Part shown: positions 4,038 through 18,705 of the stretch, piece after piece
How positions within the stretch are numbered: position 1 is the first letter of the stretch
Layout: every line of letters starts with the position of its first letter
From: a virus
DNA length: 24,801 bases
Virus record (IMG/VR): IMGVR_UViG_3300029893_000068
Span: 1-24,801 of that record
Reading direction: 5' to 3' (one strand)
Position numbers and translations under genes: made by a program
The notes under the pieces: generated by a model
What the model saw: only the letters and a program-made list of their open reading frames with translations
What the model was told of the DNA's origin: nothing
Databases searched by the model: none

Positions 4038-4298
4038 CTATCGGTTTGCCGTCCGCATCGACGCCGCGAACCTCGCGAGCTGATCGGCGAGATCGCCCAT
4101 TGCCGTCTGGATGCGGTACATTTCCTGTTCGTGCCGCCCGCGTTCGGCGAGCAGATCGCGCTCCAGAATGTCGAGCACGCGCGCCGAGCGCTCGACGACC
4201 TCCACGGCTTTCATGTTCAGGACCTCCGGGATGGGTGCGAAGCCGAACAGGTCGGCGGTGGCCGGAAGGGGAAAGAGGTCGATCACGTCTGCGCTCAT
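4038..4298 (-). CDS. hypothetical helical phage protein (86 aa)
   Basis: The start at ATG 4298-4296 overlaps the TGA of the alanine-rich gene (ATGA). The N-terminal segment MSADVIDLFPLPATADLFG is hydrophobic with prolines. The remainder is one predicted amphipathic coiled-coil helix (VVERSARVLDILERDLLAERG...) ending in RTANR. Similar DLFPLP-type N-termini occur in rhizobial phage proteins of unknown function. It is part of the leftward early operon. Confidence 0.65.
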   Translation of the reverse strand: MSADVIDLFPLPATADLFGFAPIPEVLNMKAVEVVERSARVLDILERDLLAERGRHEQEMYRIQTAMGDLADQLARFAASMRTANR

Positions 4299-4900
4299 AA
4301 TTGTTGCTCCGCTTGGGAGAGGGCCACGGGCGGGAATGCGGCAATGATGTCCTGGCGCTGCCGCTCGCGTTCCTTTTTGCTGGCAGCGGCGGCGGCGGCG
4401 GCGGAGACGGCGGCGGCGGCGTCGGCGGCGGCGGCGGCGGAGACGGCGGCGTAGGTGGCGGTGTAGGCGGCGGCGTCGGCGGCGGCGGCGGCGGCGGCGG
4501 CGGCGTAGGCGGCGTTCAGATCAACGCTGTCATCCCCAGCGCACCATTTTTCAATGGCCGCGATGCATTTGTGTACTCGCTGGTCTTTCGTGGATGCAGA
4601 CACACGTTTGATGGCTGGCAGCACGGCGCCCGCGATCACCGCACGGCGCACGGCGATGTCCGGCCAATCGAGCACGCGAACGCACCACATCGCGTCTGCG
4701 GCATCGTTGATCGTGGCGATGTCGCCGAGCGATACCACGCGGTCAGGATCGTATATGCCTTTGTAGCCAAGGCCAGCGAGCAATTTCTTCCAACCATCCT
4801 TGCATGGGTGCTTGGCGCGGATCGAGGCGAGCGTCATGATGGGGTTGAACGCAGGCGGGTTCTCAATCTGGGCCATCATGCAGCCCCTGTCCGCGCTCAT
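4295..4900 (-). CDS. alanine-repeat phage protein (Imm5-like group suspected)
   Basis: This 201-aa protein has a conserved-looking N-terminal part with SIRAKHPCKDGWKKLLAGLG, a VVSLGDIATINDAADAMWCVR segment and a DIAVRRAVIAGAVLPAI helix, followed by about 45 residues that are almost all alanine broken by Asp, Tyr, Ser and Thr. Phage proteins with a KPCxDGWxKLL start, a DALWCxR middle and an Ala-rich repeat tail are common, and some are annotated as Imm5-like putative immunity proteins. I rely on that memory only. The start ATG 4900-4898 overlaps the upstream TGA. The tail is coded by GCN triplets and is probably variable in length. Confidence 0.7.
   Translation of the reverse strand: MSADRGCMMAQIENPPAFNPIMTLASIRAKHPCKDGWKKLLAGLGYKGIYDPDRVVSLGDIATINDAADAMWCVRVLDWPDIAVRRAVIAGAVLPAIKRVSASTKDQRVHKCIAAIEKWCAGDDSVDLNAAYAAAAAAAAADAAAYTATYAAVSAAAAADAAAAVSAAAAAAASKKERERQRQDIIAAFPPVALSQAEQQL
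4381..4515. repeat. GCN/GGC triplet repeat tract coding a polyalanine tail
   Basis: On the plus strand this tract is nearly all ggc/gcg triplets, with interruptions gac, gtc, gta and gtg that read on the minus strand as Ala runs broken by Val/Ser, Tyr or Thr codons. A unit of five or six GCN triplets followed by GAGAC occurs twice (around 4394-4409 and 4431-4446). It lies in frame inside the alanine-rich gene, so length changes by replication slippage would keep the frame. Confidence 0.85.
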
Positions 4901-6856: not shown

Positions 6857-7564
6857 ATGATGAAACGTCTGCTTCTTGCGACCGCCGCCGTGGCACTCGC
6901 CATGCCGGCCTTTGCTGCCGACGTACCCGAGACGCGCACCACGCGCACGGCTACGGCCATATTCGATTGGAGCGGCTTCTATGCCGGCGCGCATGCGGGC
7001 TATGCCTGGGGCGAGGCCAGGGGCTCGATCTCGCCATTCGGTTTTGGCCCATTCGCTTATTCGCCCGACCCCGATGGCTGGTTCTATGGGCTGCATGCCG
7101 GTGCGCAGAGGCAGCTCGGCACGCTCGTCCTCGGCGTCGATGGGTCGATCTCCAAGGCCAACATCAAAGGTTCGTCGGGCGTAACCGGCCCTGGTGGGGC
7201 AATCGCCGGGCTCTCGACCAGTTATGATGTCGCCTGGCTGGCGATGGCCGAGGTTAAGGCTGGTTTTGCTTGGGGTGCTTGGCTACCGCACCTCACCGCC
7301 GGCGGCGCTTGTGGCCTTGGCAATGCGACGGCGGCCTTCGGCGCGACTTCGGTCGGCTCGTCCGATACCTGGCACTGCGGCTGGACTGCGGGCGCTGGGC
7401 TCGATTGGGCCATCGCCAGCAACCTGATCTTGAACGTCGGCTACCGCTACGTCGATCTCGGCTCCGCGCAGGTGAGCTTCCCGATCAGCGGCGGCGTTGG
7501 CGTGAGCGTGCCGGTCGATCTCAAGGCGCACATGATCAGGGGCGGAGCCTCGCTGAAATTCTGA
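6857..7564 (+). CDS. outer-membrane beta-barrel protein (Omp25/RopB-like)
   Basis: The 235-aa protein has a signal peptide (MMKRLLLATAAVALAMPAFA, cleavage before AD), then FDWSGFYAGAHAGYAWG, the hallmark first strand of alphaproteobacterial 8-strand barrels, alternating strands through the body, NVGYRYVDLGS near the end, and a C-terminal Phe for BAM recognition. Such porin-like proteins are common host genes. In a phage the closest parallel is lambda Lom, a lysogenic conversion gene. It probably alters the host surface in lysogens (adsorption, adhesion or exclusion), which is inference. The start may be the first or second Met, and GGGGGT precedes it. It is followed by a hairpin. Confidence 0.8.
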   Translation: MMKRLLLATAAVALAMPAFAADVPETRTTRTATAIFDWSGFYAGAHAGYAWGEARGSISPFGFGPFAYSPDPDGWFYGLHAGAQRQLGTLVLGVDGSISKANIKGSSGVTGPGGAIAGLSTSYDVAWLAMAEVKAGFAWGAWLPHLTAGGACGLGNATAAFGATSVGSSDTWHCGWTAGAGLDWAIASNLILNVGYRYVDLGSAQVSFPISGGVGVSVPVDLKAHMIRGGASLKF

Positions 7565-9585: not shown

Positions 9586-9857
9586 CCGCCCCGCGCCGCA
9601 TCGTCGCCCGCGTCTCGGATCATGCGCTCGTCAGGTATCTTGAGCGCGTCAAGGGCTTCGACATGGCCGCGCTGCGCGCCGAGATTCTGACGCCCGGCGT
9701 TGTTGCCGCGATCGAGGCCGGCGCTCGCACCATCAAGCTTGGCGACGTCAAGTTTCCAGTCAACGATGGCGTGATCTGCACCGTGCTCGCGAACAGCCAG
9801 CGCGCGAAGCGCCGTGATCGCAAGCAGCGGTTTGTGCTCGATCGGGTGGGATTATGA
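9582..9857 (+). CDS. hypothetical phage protein after the methyltransferase (91 aa)
   Basis: ATG 9582 overlaps the methyltransferase TGA as ATGA. The product contains VSDHALVRYLERVKGFD, a pattern seen in many alphaproteobacterial phage proteins, then a helical part, then a small beta region (GDVKFPVNDGVICTVL) ending in basic residues. The arrangement is compatible with a small alpha/beta nucleic-acid-binding protein, but I recognise no named family. It is coupled to the replication gene that follows by another ATGA. Confidence 0.65.
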   Translation: MTAPRRIVARVSDHALVRYLERVKGFDMAALRAEILTPGVVAAIEAGARTIKLGDVKFPVNDGVICTVLANSQRAKRRDRKQRFVLDRVGL

Positions 9858-10708
9858 GTCGTTGGTTCCGATATTACGATGAAGCGCTCAACGATCCGAA
9901 GGTGCAGACGCTGCCCGGAGAGTTGTTCAAGACATGGGTGAACCTCCTCTCAGTCGCGTCGAAATACAACGGTAAGCTTCCCGTTATCTCCGAGTTGTCC
10001 TACCTGCTGCGCCGGAGATCGGACCACCTTCAACGCGATCTTAACACCCTAGTTGAGCGCGGTTTATTCGACCTAGTTGGCGACCACTTGGAACCGCATA
10101 ACTGGCAGCGCCGACAATACAAATCCGACAATTCGACCGCTCGTGTGCAACAGCATAGAGCCGAGAAAAGAAACGTTTCATGTAACGACGATGAAACGTC
10201 CACAGAGACAGATACAGAGTCAGAGACAGAACAGAACAGAACAGAGAAGGGTGGCGCTAACGCGCCACTACGGCGGCGAGCCGACCACCTTCCTGATGAG
10301 CCTAAGCAGGCAATGGACGCCTACAACCTCATTGCCGAGCGCGTCGGCTGGGAAATTGCTCAGCGATTGCCCGGCGTTCGGAGGCAAAAACTCAGAGCCC
10401 GATTGGCTGAATGCGGCGGAATCGAAGGCTGGAAAGCGGCAATGGCCAGAGCTGGCCAGTCGGATTTTCTTACCGGCAAGATCCCCAAGAACGACGAGCA
10501 TGCGCACTGGCGCCCGACGCTCGATTTCTTCTTGCAGCCCAAGAGTTTCACGCGATTGATGGAAGGTAGCTATGACAACCGTCCCCGCACGAACGGACAG
10601 CACCGCACTGGCCTCGCCGCTGCGCTCGATCAGGCCCGCGAGTACGCTCGAGGTGGCGATTTTGCAGACACTGCCGTTCCCGAAGATGGACGGCCGCCAG
10701 GCCGCTGA
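9854..10708 (+). CDS. phage replication protein, O-like
   Basis: The N-terminal half (MSRWFRYYDEALNDPKVQTL, then WVNLLSVASKYNGKLP, a LLRRRSDHLQRDLNTLVERG helix pair and LEPHNWQRRQYKSD) is the winged-helix start typical of phage replication initiators. A Thr/Glu/Asp linker (about 115-132) follows, then a C-terminal part with RLPGVRRQKLRARLAECGGI and a WRPTLDFFLQPKSFTRL segment, common at the end of these proteins. It probably binds the origin and recruits the helicase. The last 137 bp overlap the next gene, which has its own ribosome site. The linker is coded by a CAGA-type repeat that may be the origin. Confidence 0.75.
   Translation: MSRWFRYYDEALNDPKVQTLPGELFKTWVNLLSVASKYNGKLPVISELSYLLRRRSDHLQRDLNTLVERGLFDLVGDHLEPHNWQRRQYKSDNSTARVQQHRAEKRNVSCNDDETSTETDTESETEQNRTEKGGANAPLRRRADHLPDEPKQAMDAYNLIAERVGWEIAQRLPGVRRQKLRARLAECGGIEGWKAAMARAGQSDFLTGKIPKNDEHAHWRPTLDFFLQPKSFTRLMEGSYDNRPRTNGQHRTGLAAALDQAREYARGGDFADTAVPEDGRPPGR
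10199..10250. repeat. CAGA/ACAGA purine-rich repeat inside the replication gene
   Basis: About 50 bp consist of ACAGAGACAG, ATACAGAGTC and three ACAGA(A) units, with GC well below the surroundings. It encodes the Thr/Glu/Gln linker. Lambda-type origins lie in the O gene as direct repeats beside an AT-rich stretch, so this is a candidate origin. A slippage-generated linker is an equally good explanation. Confidence 0.5.
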
Positions 10709-14435: not shown

Positions 14436-14517
14436 ACGACAAAAGAGCATCGCGTCATCACGAATTGTTACATGAGGTGCGTTGCCGGGAGGCGAGCAGC
14501 ACGGCACGTCATCCGCA

Positions 14518-15132
14518 ATGGCGAACCGTCAGCAGATTACCCGCCCGTCGCCCGCGCTCATCGCCGCCCGCAAGCGGGAGATCGCCAAGCGCTACGCGCG
14601 CAAAGATAAGCGCTCGATCCCGCTCACATTCGCGGCCGTGCGGCTGTCGGAGCTCAATCGCTTATACCAATACCGCCACGGCCGCGAGCTGCCCGCCACC
14701 GACGACGGCCTGCAAGCCGCCCGCCTCGCCGTGCACCATATCGGCCGGCTCAGAGACGCCGCCCGCCGCATTGGTTCGTGGCTCGACTACTGGACTCCGT
14801 GGCTTGATCTCGCATCTCGCGAGCGCCTGATCCGTGACGCCACTGAGCATCCGCTGCGCTGGCGAGCCGACAAGATCGCATGGAAATTGCGCGTGACGGC
14901 TGGCGAGCGCCAGGCGCTCAATCTGCGCACCATTGGCGCGATCGACGAGACAAGGGCCGAGCGCCAAGCCAAGGCCCGCATCCTCAAGCGGGAGCGCGAT
15001 CAAGCCCGGCGCAGAGCACAAGGCGTCAAGCCGCGGGCCGATTACGAGCGCAACGCTATCGCCAAGCAGGCACCATGGGAGGCCGTCGGCATCAGCCGCG
15101 CCACCTGGTACAGGCGCCGCCTGAGACTGTGA
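14518..15132 (+). CDS. phage DNA-binding-like protein upstream of the terminase genes (204 aa)
   Basis: ATG 14518 is my choice, although no good ribosome site precedes it. The protein has a basic N-terminus, a region with LSELNRLYQYRHGRELPATD, a WRADKIAWKLRVTAGERQAL segment with TIGAIDE, a strongly basic helix (RQAKARILKRERDQARRRAQ) and a C-terminal APWEAVGISRATWYRRR that looks like a helix-turn-helix. This family is common in rhizobial prophages with the ending 'WYRRR'. It may be a late regulator or a DNA-packaging accessory, judged from its place before terminase. Its stop lies within the left arm of a large inverted repeat. Confidence 0.65.
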   Translation: MANRQQITRPSPALIAARKREIAKRYARKDKRSIPLTFAAVRLSELNRLYQYRHGRELPATDDGLQAARLAVHHIGRLRDAARRIGSWLDYWTPWLDLASRERLIRDATEHPLRWRADKIAWKLRVTAGERQALNLRTIGAIDETRAERQAKARILKRERDQARRRAQGVKPRADYERNAIAKQAPWEAVGISRATWYRRRLRL

Positions 15133-15188
15133 GACAAGTCCGCGCCACGCATATCATAGTATATATATGGAGCGCGGACCTGTCTCAC
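15129..15188. repeat. 17-bp inverted repeat with an AT-rich loop
   Basis: The left arm GTGAGACAAGTCCGCGC (15129-15145) and right arm GCGCGGACCTGTCTCAC (15172-15188) are complementary at 16 of 17 positions. The 26-nt loop contains ATATCATAGTATATATAT, by far the most AT-rich stretch nearby. It starts at the stop of the upstream gene and ends about 58 bp before the putative small terminase. It could be a pac or cos recognition site, an origin, a terminator or a late regulatory site. Confidence 0.8.
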
Positions 15189-15246
15189 ATCCGCCGCACC
15201 AGCCAGTGCGTTGACCATGCGCCCGCCGCTCCCGCACCCTCCCACC

Positions 15247-15774
15247 ATGTCCAACGACCTCACCCTAGACGAGCGCCCAGCAGGACCGCCGGCCGCCTCA
15301 ATCGTTCGCGTTCCCACCAAGGATGGCGTCAAGGAGATCCGCGGCAGGCTGAAACGCGCCTTGGACCTCATGGTCTTCGGCGATCAAGAGACCATGACGC
15401 CAATCGAATGGAATGAAGCAGCTCAGCGCGTCGGCTTCTCCGTCCGCCGAATGAGATCAGCGCTCGAACGTCCGCACGTCCAGCGGTACATCAGGCAGCA
15501 AAAACAGGTGTTTCGAGCAAGCGCCAGCGCAGGAAACATTCTCGTCGCTAAGCAGATTCGCGACAAGAGCGCGAACGATAACGCGCGCATGAAGGCGATC
15601 GGCTATCTCGACGGCATCGCCGATCATGAGCAGAACGGCGCGGCTCGTCATGTGACGCCGGGCGTCGTTGTGCAGGTGAATGTCAGCTCGCGCGCGGATC
15701 GCCAGATAGACAATCTGGACGTGATCGAGGTTAACCCGCTGGGTGAGCAGCAGCCGGTGCGGAACGACGAGTAA
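15247..15774 (+). CDS. putative terminase small subunit (TerS)
   Basis: From ATG 15247 the 175-aa protein has a central helix-turn-helix (PIEWNEAAQRVGFSVRRMRS with ALERPHVQRYIRQQKQVFRA) followed by a helical AKQIRDKSANDNARMKAIGY region and a beta-rich C-terminus (GVVVQVNVSSRADRQIDNLD). HTH-plus-helical-oligomerisation order and position five genes upstream of TerL fit small terminases, which recognise the packaging site and load the large subunit. In-frame TTG 15211 and ATG 15217 are alternative starts. No clear ribosome site is visible. Confidence 0.65.
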   Translation: MSNDLTLDERPAGPPAASIVRVPTKDGVKEIRGRLKRALDLMVFGDQETMTPIEWNEAAQRVGFSVRRMRSALERPHVQRYIRQQKQVFRASASAGNILVAKQIRDKSANDNARMKAIGYLDGIADHEQNGAARHVTPGVVVQVNVSSRADRQIDNLDVIEVNPLGEQQPVRNDE

Positions 15775-16951: not shown

Positions 16952-17140
16952 ATGGCCGATCCGGGAAAACGCAGGCATCAATCGCGCGAGCATAAGCTGG
17001 CGATCAGCCGCGCCCTGCGCGAAGCCTGGGTACGGCGCAAGGCCATGGAAATCGACGAGGGCGAGCGGGGGATTGACCTGCGGGCCCGCGACCGCCTGCT
17101 CGAGCGCCTGCGCGAAGTTCACGGGGAGCGGTACAAATGA
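16952..17140 (+). CDS. small basic protein before the large terminase (62 aa)
   Basis: It begins MADPGKRRHQSREHKLAISR and has a charged helical remainder ending LLERLREVHGERYK. The ATG lies 47 bp after the previous stop, and the TGA overlaps the TerL start as ATGA. The N-terminal motif (HxxAISxALREAWxRRK) resembles the NUMOD-type or other short DNA-binding motifs seen in small phage proteins. No specific function is known. A packaging accessory is plausible from position. Confidence 0.6.
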   Translation: MADPGKRRHQSREHKLAISRALREAWVRRKAMEIDEGERGIDLRARDRLLERLREVHGERYK

Positions 17141-18705
17141 GCGCGCCCGCCCGGGCCCTGCCGCAACTCCGCTTCACGCCCGAAGGGCAGAAGATTTACG
17201 AGCCGGACGGCGAGGTGCTCGGCCGGTTTCTCCTCGATCGCAGCCATGTGTCGATCATCCGCGGGCCGTGGGGCTCGGGCAAGACGCTCGCGGTCATCAA
17301 CAAGATTTGGCAGATCGCGTGCGAGCAGGCGCGCTCGCCGCTCGACGGCCTGCGCAAGACGCGCTGGGGCGTGGTGCGGAATCATTATGGTGAGCTGCGC
17401 GATACGACGCTGAAGGACGTGATCGACTGGCTGCCGCCGGCCGAGTACGGCAACGATCTGAAGCTGTCGCGGCCGATGATCTATCACCTGCGGCTAGGAG
17501 ATGTTTCCTGCGAATTGATTTTCATCGCGCTCGACGGGCCGGAGGACGTGCAGAAGCTGATGTCGACGCACTTCACCGGCTTCTGGTTTCACGAGATGCA
17601 GTTCACCGCCAAGCAGGTGTTCGACGACGCGGAAGGGCGCACGGGCCGCTATCCGCCGGTGCGCGACGGCGGGCCGACCTGGCACGGCATCCTCGGCGAC
17701 ATGAACGAGCCGGGCGAGGATCACTGGCTGGTGCGGATGACGCACGAGGTGCCGCTGCCGGTCGACATGACGCCGGAGGAGCGCGAGCGCTGGCACTGGC
17801 CGAAGGAGTGGGCGTACTTCGTGCAGCCGCCGGCGCTGATCGAGGTATTTCATGCCGATGGCAAGACGCTGCGCGGCTACCGCATCAATCCGGCGGCGGA
17901 GAATACGCTATGGCTGCCGCCCGGATTCTATCGGGAGAAGATCACCGGCAAGGACCGCCGCTGGATCGACTCGCGGCTGATGAACCGGATTTCCGTGTGG
18001 GTCGACGGCGAGCCGGTTTGGCGCGGCTTCTCGCCGGAGACGCACGTGGCGAAGGAGGCGCTGAAGCCGATCGCCGGGCTGACGCTGTACGTGGGATTGG
18101 ACTTCGGCCGCTCGCCGGCGGCCGTGCTCGGGCAGCGGGTCGGGACCAGGTGGCAGATCCTCGATGAGATCGTGGCGTTCGATGTGGATTCGTCGGAGTT
18201 CGCGCCGATGCTGAAGCGCAAGCTCGCGGAGCCGCGCTACGCCGGGATCACGGACATTCGCATTTACGGCGATCCGAAGGGCACCGACAAGTTCCAGTCG
18301 ACCGAGCGCACGAGCTACGACATCTTCGAGAGCTTCGGGCTGCACGTGATCGAGTGCCCGTGCAACGACAACGACATCGAGCTGCGCGTGAACGCGGTGG
18401 CGGACTTGCTGCGGCGGATGGAGAACGGCGCGCCATGTCTCTTGCTCGATCCGGCGCGGGTGCCGACCCTGAAGACGGCGATGGCCGGCCGCTATCATCG
18501 TGAGCGCATCAAGGGTGCGGACGGCGTGGTGAAGGAAATCCCGAAGAAGGACCGCTACTCCAACGTGGCCGACGCGCTGCAATACATGGTGCTGGGCGCC
18601 GGCGAGGGCAGGACGCTCTTGGGCAAGTCGGCGCAGACCGCGGCCCGCGTGGTGCGGCTGCCGCCGCGGCGGCAGCGCTTCACCGGCGCGCGAAGGCCGT
18701 TCTGA
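17137..18705 (+). CDS. terL: terminase large subunit (TerL)
   Basis: The 522-aa protein has the packaging ATPase domain with Walker A GPWGSGKT (43-50) and a Walker B-like GFWFHEMQ (148-155, Glu153). The RNase H-like nuclease domain carries Asp322 in VGLDFGRSP, Asp379 in YGDPKGTDK and Asp479 in YSNVADALQY. TerL docks on the portal, drives DNA into the prohead and cuts the concatemer. Length and both catalytic sites look complete. The start overlaps the upstream TGA. It is followed by portal, scaffold and capsid genes. Confidence 0.92.
   Translation: MSAPARALPQLRFTPEGQKIYEPDGEVLGRFLLDRSHVSIIRGPWGSGKTLAVINKIWQIACEQARSPLDGLRKTRWGVVRNHYGELRDTTLKDVIDWLPPAEYGNDLKLSRPMIYHLRLGDVSCELIFIALDGPEDVQKLMSTHFTGFWFHEMQFTAKQVFDDAEGRTGRYPPVRDGGPTWHGILGDMNEPGEDHWLVRMTHEVPLPVDMTPEERERWHWPKEWAYFVQPPALIEVFHADGKTLRGYRINPAAENTLWLPPGFYREKITGKDRRWIDSRLMNRISVWVDGEPVWRGFSPETHVAKEALKPIAGLTLYVGLDFGRSPAAVLGQRVGTRWQILDEIVAFDVDSSEFAPMLKRKLAEPRYAGITDIRIYGDPKGTDKFQSTERTSYDIFESFGLHVIECPCNDNDIELRVNAVADLLRRMENGAPCLLLDPARVPTLKTAMAGRYHRERIKGADGVVKEIPKKDRYSNVADALQYMVLGAGEGRTLLGKSAQTAARVVRLPPRRQRFTGARRPF

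What the first reader, a model, noticed from the sequence alone, without database searches (positions are those of the whole stretch)
15129..15188. Large inverted repeat with AT-rich loop just before the small terminase
Two 17-bp arms (one mismatch) enclose 26 bp that include ATATCATAGTATATATAT in an otherwise GC-rich genome. It starts at the upstream stop codon and sits about 58 bp before the putative terS, where packaging sites often lie. No intrinsic T-run supports a plain terminator. It could be a pac/cos site, an origin of the late phase or a late operator.
Basis: partly seen in the sequence, partly recalled or inferred. Interest (0 to 1): 0.65.

Follow-up and report, generated by a model that had tools for sequence, protein, structure and literature searches.

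The report
Phage initiator's own DNA-binding palindrome
A hairpin-like DNA palindrome ahead of a phage's packaging genes turns out to be the binding site of the protein encoded just before it, a relative of the protein that starts replication of plasmid ColE2, so it is most likely a replication origin rather than a packaging site.

Summary
The inverted repeat is real (arms 15128-15145 and 15172-15189, one A.C mismatch, AT-rich spacer). It is not specific to the terminase. It belongs to the gene that ends inside its left arm (14518-15132). That protein has an unclassified helical core and a C-terminal helix-turn-helix (HTH) whose only significant PDB sequence match is the DNA-binding domain of ColE2-P9 Rep (3vw4; profile E 4e-9). 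In 30 phage loci the same place holds an inverted repeat. Its outer half-site follows two HTH residues: RA gives TGAGAC (21 loci), RR gives TGGCAC (9 loci), with no crossover. Relatives without the HTH have only a shorter inner hairpin. Six circular Methylobacterium plasmids with no recognised Rep carry core homologues with half-sites exactly 60 bp apart that obey and extend the code. ColE2's own origin starts with TGAGAC just after its HTH. Best reading: an initiator-binding replication origin at the 3' end of its initiator gene, ColE2-like but without a primase. A transcriptional operator for the late genes is the main rival. The pac/cos reading is weak. Protein-site pairing is well supported by comparison; origin activity is inferred.

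The parts
14518..15132 (+). Gene for the site-binding protein (204 aa): helical core, long helix, C-terminal HTH (alternative TTG start at 14482)
   Evidence: AF2 pLDDT 93, depth 41; no Pfam, PHROG or NCBIfam family
15034..15126 (+). C-terminal HTH (residues 173-203); specificity residues R194-A195 at 15097-15102 (GISRATWYRRR)
   Evidence: match to ColE2-P9 Rep DNA-binding domain 3vw4; hhalign to ColE2-type Reps prob 96.6, E 5.5e-10, 36 columns
15122..15127 (+). Second, direct copy of half-site TGAGAC
   Evidence: seen 8-11 bp before the left arm in many relatives
15128..15145 (+). Left arm, with half-site TGAGACAAGTCC (15130-15141) overlapping the stop codon
15146..15171 (.). AT-rich spacer, with partial inner pairing GCATAT/ATATAT
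   Evidence: equivalent inner hairpin conserved in relatives
15172..15189 (-). Right arm, with inverted half-site TGAGACAGGTCC (15176-15187)
   Evidence: the two arms hold the only exact TGAGACARGTSC sites in the window
15206..15213 (+). GTGCGTTG leader motif before terS (another copy at 14477-14484 before the HTH gene)
   Evidence: role unknown, may not belong to the module
15247..15774 (+). Putative terS (neighbour, not part of the module)
   Evidence: position and conserved synteny; no family hit of its own
17137..18705 (+). terL (neighbour)
   Evidence: phrog_2, E 1.1e-14
9854..10708 (+). O-like replication protein / DnaD-like helicase loader (neighbour, possible partner)
   Evidence: phrog_10469 E 3.7e-18, phrog_345 E 4.3e-17

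Best explanation
The palindrome is the DNA site of the protein whose gene ends inside it. Shown by comparison: two copies of the C-terminal HTH's recognition sequence (TGAGACARGTSC) lie in inverted orientation about 60 bp apart around an AT-rich, partly self-complementary centre, and HTH specificity and half-site change together. Inferred: the protein is a replication initiator and the palindrome its origin, placed as in ColE2 at the 3' end of the initiator gene. HTHs of two protomers would grip the outer half-sites while the core acts on the inner hairpin and opens the AT-rich centre, after which the phage's DnaD/O-like loader brings the host helicase. The protein has no primase domain, so priming must come from elsewhere. 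In some relatives a third half-site before the gene suggests autoregulation.
For: (1) The only significant PDB sequence match is the ColE2-P9 Rep DNA-binding domain (hhalign). (2) A blind DNA pattern scan of 2.9 million viral contigs gave 4 contigs, all with the repeat directly behind a GISRAT-type HTH gene. (3) RA helices have TGAGAC arms (21 loci), RR helices TGGCAC arms (9), no crossover (Fisher p 7e-8 ignoring kinship); on a tree of the core 4 of 4 independent pairs agree. Background: 10 and 0 of 7,276 windows. (4) HTH-less relatives end in a shorter hairpin without the outer half-sites, 4 of 4 independent pairs. (5) Six small circular Methylobacteriaceae plasmids with no typed replicon and no Rep found carry core homologues with half-sites exactly 60 bp apart obeying the same code. 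(6) A ColE2-type plasmid has TGAGACCAGATAAGCC... 30 nt after its HTH, same orientation; its relative pEI2 with helix RR has GCAC where RA has AGAC. (7) Relatives of the module lie beside a helicase and Prim-Pol. (8) PMC5304414: origin at the 3' end of, or just after, rep in ColE2-like replicons.
Against: The core was not recognised as PriCT by Pfam, hhalign or Foldseek, and there is no primase domain. ColE2's CAGATAA repeats are absent from this site. The phage already has an O-like replication gene, which could have its own origin. The usual position between replication genes and terS also suits a late-gene regulator. GC skew shows no clear switch at the site. The six plasmids share another HTH protein that could be their Rep. 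Two of five ColE2-type plasmids examined do not show the half-site.
Confidence: 0.6

Rival explanations
1. Operator for transcription control: the HTH protein is a late-gene (or switch) regulator that binds the palindrome at its own gene's end to control the terS-terL-portal operon, as lambda Q acts at a site next to its gene, and represses itself through a half-site before its start codon.
For: In most loci the gene lies just before terS/terL/portal on the same strand. Nine relatives carry a cognate half-site 23-30 nt before the ATG, of the class matching the helix in 9 of 9. Sigma-70-like matches on both strands overlap the palindrome, 2 found against 0.1 expected. Plasmid homologues are annotated 'transcriptional regulator'.
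Against: The same module occurs beside helicase/primase or integrase genes and on plasmids without late genes. A promoter at a fixed place in the palindrome was not shown for relatives. A long inner hairpin with compensatory changes is not needed for an operator. Initiators also autoregulate.
Confidence: 0.25
2. Packaging site (pac/cos) recognised by terS.
For: The window site is 58 nt before the putative terS; most relatives also lie near terS.
Against: The arms track the HTH of another protein across different terS/terL clusters and on plasmids; a phage with related terminase genes lacks the palindrome in the stretch examined.
Confidence: 0.05
3. RNA hairpin: terminator, attenuator or protein-binding RNA at the end of the transcript.
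For: Strong RNA fold (z -5.1); arms covary (positions 13-16 and 18 keep 77-93% Watson-Crick pairing with 3-4 pair types); the basic tails of HTH-less relatives could bind RNA.
Against: No T-run, no Rfam family; no excess of G-T over A-C on the transcribed strand, which RNA selection would leave; the HTH matches a dsDNA origin binder; ColE2 and Xanthomonas-type plasmids have the same half-site without this hairpin.
Confidence: 0.07
4. The arms are complementary mainly by mutation: template switching keeps repairing the palindrome, and only the half-sites are functional.
For: Inner arm sequence varies quickly while complementarity persists; quasipalindrome correction is a known process (own knowledge).
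Against: Conserved mismatches at positions 7 and 10 survive in many loci, and the inner CASCATAAG-like motif is conserved in HTH-less relatives.
Confidence: 0.03

Closest known systems
ColE2-P9 / ColE2-type replicon (Rep HTH and origin)
   Same: Homologous HTH (3vw4); half-site TGAGAC in the same orientation just behind the HTH; origin at the 3' end of the initiator gene; same RA/RR to AG/GC change seen within ColE2 relatives (PMC5304414, PMC5862659)
   Different: No primase domain, core not recognisable as PriCT, half-sites inverted about 60 bp apart with an AT-rich hairpin between them, no CAGATAA repeats; found in phages and Methylobacterium plasmids
Primase-type RepA of Xanthomonas, Alcaligenes and Aeromonas plasmids
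   Same: C-terminal HTH (GMSRASWYR) and TGAGACARGTCC copies at or just after the end of repA
   Different: Half-sites are direct repeats, not inverted; no similarity of the rest of RepA to the phage core was seen (tblastn match limited to the C-terminus)
Lambda Q / qut
   Same: Regulator gene just before late genes with its DNA site next to the gene end (own knowledge)
   Different: No sequence relation tested or seen; Q sites are not long palindromes
Iteron initiators (RepE, pi)
   Same: Initiator that binds repeated sites and may autoregulate (own knowledge)
   Different: No iteron array here; different protein

Membership tests
ColE2-type replicon | HTH homologous to the Rep origin-binding HTH | tested here: met
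   3vw4 profile E 4.3e-9; hhalign prob 96.6
ColE2-type replicon | Primase (AEP) domain in the initiator | tested here: not met
   204-aa all-helical protein, no primase family hit
ColE2-type replicon | PriCT domain before the HTH | tested here: inconclusive
   not found by Pfam, hhalign or Foldseek; a helical domain sits at that place
ColE2-type replicon | Origin at or just after the 3' end of rep, with the HTH half-site | tested here: met
   TGAGAC half-site overlaps the stop codon; compared with L076. Placement and half-site only; origin activity not tested
ColE2-type replicon | CAGATAA direct repeats in the origin | tested here: not met
   absent from 15128-15189
ColE2-type replicon | Autonomous replication from the site | not testable with these tools
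   needs a replication assay
Phage pac/cos site | Site conserved with the terminase and absent without it | tested here: not met
   follows the HTH gene across different terminases and on plasmids
Phage pac/cos site | Virion DNA ends at the site | not testable with these tools
   no virion end data
Intrinsic terminator | GC-rich stem followed by a T-run | tested here: not met
   none found
Known structured RNA | Match to an Rfam family | tested here: not met
   0 at gathering; only far sub-threshold miRNA matches

The most novel reading that the evidence does not exclude
An undescribed family of primase-less replication initiators shared by phages and small alphaproteobacterial plasmids. Protein and origin are built from matching modules: the core goes with an inner AT-rich hairpin, an optional ColE2-type HTH with an outer pair of half-sites, and two HTH residues spell the outer sequence, so origin specificity could be read from the protein sequence.
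Probability: 0.4. Interest if true: 0.75.

Novelty: new variant of a known kind. Interest (0 to 1): 0.62.

Why it matters
It would give a function to a protein family absent from Pfam, PHROGs and NCBIfam, explain how several Methylobacterium plasmids without a recognised Rep replicate, and extend the ColE2 origin principle to phages without its primase. Domain gain and specificity change in the protein are mirrored in the DNA next to its gene, which makes an initiator-origin recognition code directly testable with a few small constructs.

Tried and rejected
Genome-wide pattern scan of GTDB genomes gave 24 unrelated palindromes. Surveys of about 385 genomes each gave one weak match with profile A2 and none with the DNA pattern, so no prophage census. 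A first HTH-blind alignment was too diverse. Foldseek of a confident model found no significant fold. No phage record of the annotated collection encodes a detectable core homologue. Rfam: nothing. Intrinsic terminator and RNA readings were rejected for lack of T-run and of G-U bias. Short GISRAT-type HTH matches in other proteins (L059-L063, L065-L075) lack the inverted pair: the site goes with the core protein, not with any GISRAT sequence. JBC 2015 and J Bact 2006 papers on the ColE2 origin were not held, so the base-level contacts of 3vw4 could not be compared. Searches for earlier reports found none.

Full report
Observation. The repeat is at the stated place: 18 positions per arm with one A.C mismatch, 26-nt AT-rich spacer, left arm holding the stop codon of the upstream gene. 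It is the strongest palindrome of the window and beats all shuffles. No T-run. The putative terS starts 58 nt downstream.

What it belongs to. A pattern built from the arms alone (GAGACARGTC-N18-48-GACYTGTCTC) was run over 2.9 million viral contigs. Four contigs matched, and in every one the palindrome sits right behind a gene ending in a GISRAT-type HTH; one of the four carries the window's own gene and palindrome unchanged (L002/L004), so the others represent two further kinds. The equivalent scan of GTDB genomes gave only unrelated palindromes. The window protein has no Pfam, PHROG or NCBIfam family. Its single PDB sequence match is 3vw4, listed as Rep (E 0.0097 alone, 4.3e-9 with a profile), which is the DNA-binding domain of ColE2-P9 Rep solved for the origin study (identity of the entry from own knowledge; the paper was not held). 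hhalign confirms the HTH only: 36 columns, probability 96.6. AlphaFold2 gives a confident helical model (pLDDT 93), with no significant fold match.

Survey. Searching with the HTH and, independently, with the core only gave about 60 viral loci. Among distinct proteins with the HTH and a site, helices with residues RA have TGAGAC outer half-sites (21 loci, at least one arm exact) and helices with RR have TGGCAC (9 loci), with no crossover. Strictly exact pairs occur in 10 and 0 of 7,276 background windows. On a tree of the core alone the helix class changes at least 5 times, and 4 of 4 supported independent pairs agree with the half-site; four pairs cannot reach p 0.05 alone. Most relatives lacking the HTH end in a shorter hairpin of the type CGCACCATAAG...TATGCTGCG whose stop codon is the TAA in CATAAG; gain or loss of the HTH and of the outer arms agree in 4 of 4 independent pairs. 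Three loci depart: L103 has only a left half-site, L051 none, L119 has a divergent helix and no repeat.

Plasmids. Core homologues lie on six complete circular Methylobacteriaceae plasmids of 20-47 kb, for which the database types no replicon. No annotated Rep was seen, and Pfam scans of the larger unknown proteins of two of them found none. Each has an inverted repeat directly behind the HTH with an outer span of exactly 60 bp: TGAGAC for RA (two plasmids), TGGCAC for RR, TGAGCC for YA and LA, TGACCC for LS. So helix residue 1 appears to read base 5 (R: A; Y/L: C) and residue 2 bases 3-4 (A: AG; R: GC; S: AC). In ColE2-type enterobacterial plasmids, L076 (RA) has TGAGACCAGATAAG 30 nt behind its HTH, L077 (RA) GTAGACCAAATAAG and L081 (RR) GTGCACCAGATAAC: the same AG to GC change. 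Two further ones (L078, L079) do not show it. Primase-type RepA plasmids carry direct copies of TGAGACARGTCC at or just after the end of repA. This is the main evidence that the phage arms are protein sites of ColE2 type.

DNA or RNA. Inside the arms, positions 13-16 and 18 keep 77-93% pairing through 3-4 pair types, so complementarity is kept while sequence changes. On the transcribed strand G-T mismatches are not commoner than A-C, so there is no sign of selection on the RNA. A DNA hairpin/cruciform, or mutational repair of the palindrome, are both possible.

Function. For an origin: homology and placement as in ColE2 (PMC5304414, PMC5862659), presence as the best Rep candidate on the six plasmids, neighbours such as a helicase and Prim-Pol in L058 and a helicase in L057, AT-rich centre among the richest of the contig. 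For an operator: usual place just before the late genes, and a cognate half-site 23-30 nt before the ATG in nine relatives, always of the matching class (not in the window). These do not exclude each other, since initiators often autoregulate. Packaging is unlikely: the palindrome tracks the HTH through different terminases and is absent from the examined stretch of Mwe-JY08, which has related terminase genes.

Certainty. Binding of the HTH to the arms: about 0.9, by comparison only. Origin function: 0.6. The core's action on the inner hairpin and the helicase loading step are inference.

Noticed in passing
window 14477, 15206, 16912, 19057, 24721 (+ strand): GTGCGTTG(C) motif, 78 on the coding strand against 3 on the other across 23 loci, often 31-34 nt before an ATG; in front of the HTH gene and of terS. 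Some copies lie inside coding sequence. Leader, promoter or translation element unknown.
   Followed up: partly
L084, L086, L087, L088, L089, L090, L093, L094, L101, just before the gene start: Cognate HTH half-site 23-30 nt before the ATG, TGAGAC or TGGCAC according to helix class (9 of 9): likely autoregulation.
   Followed up: partly
L124-L129 (Methylobacteriaceae plasmids): Plasmids pCMU02, p3META1, pAMS5c and three others have no recognised Rep; the core homologue annotated 'transcriptional regulator' or 'hypothetical' is a candidate Rep.
   Followed up: partly
L058:3180-3489: Two HTH units in one protein with the palindrome coded between them, with doubled half-sites on both sides.
   Followed up: no
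L087 and L088 near 6355: An extra half-site in inverse orientation directly abuts the left arm (GCACTTGTGCCACATGGCACAGGTCC).
   Followed up: no
window 6857-7564: Phage gene for an outer-membrane beta-barrel protein (PF13505, E 3.5e-9).
   Followed up: no
window 4295-4900 (-): Protein with a long alanine-rich repeat (AAAAADAAAYTATYAAVSAAAA).
   Followed up: no
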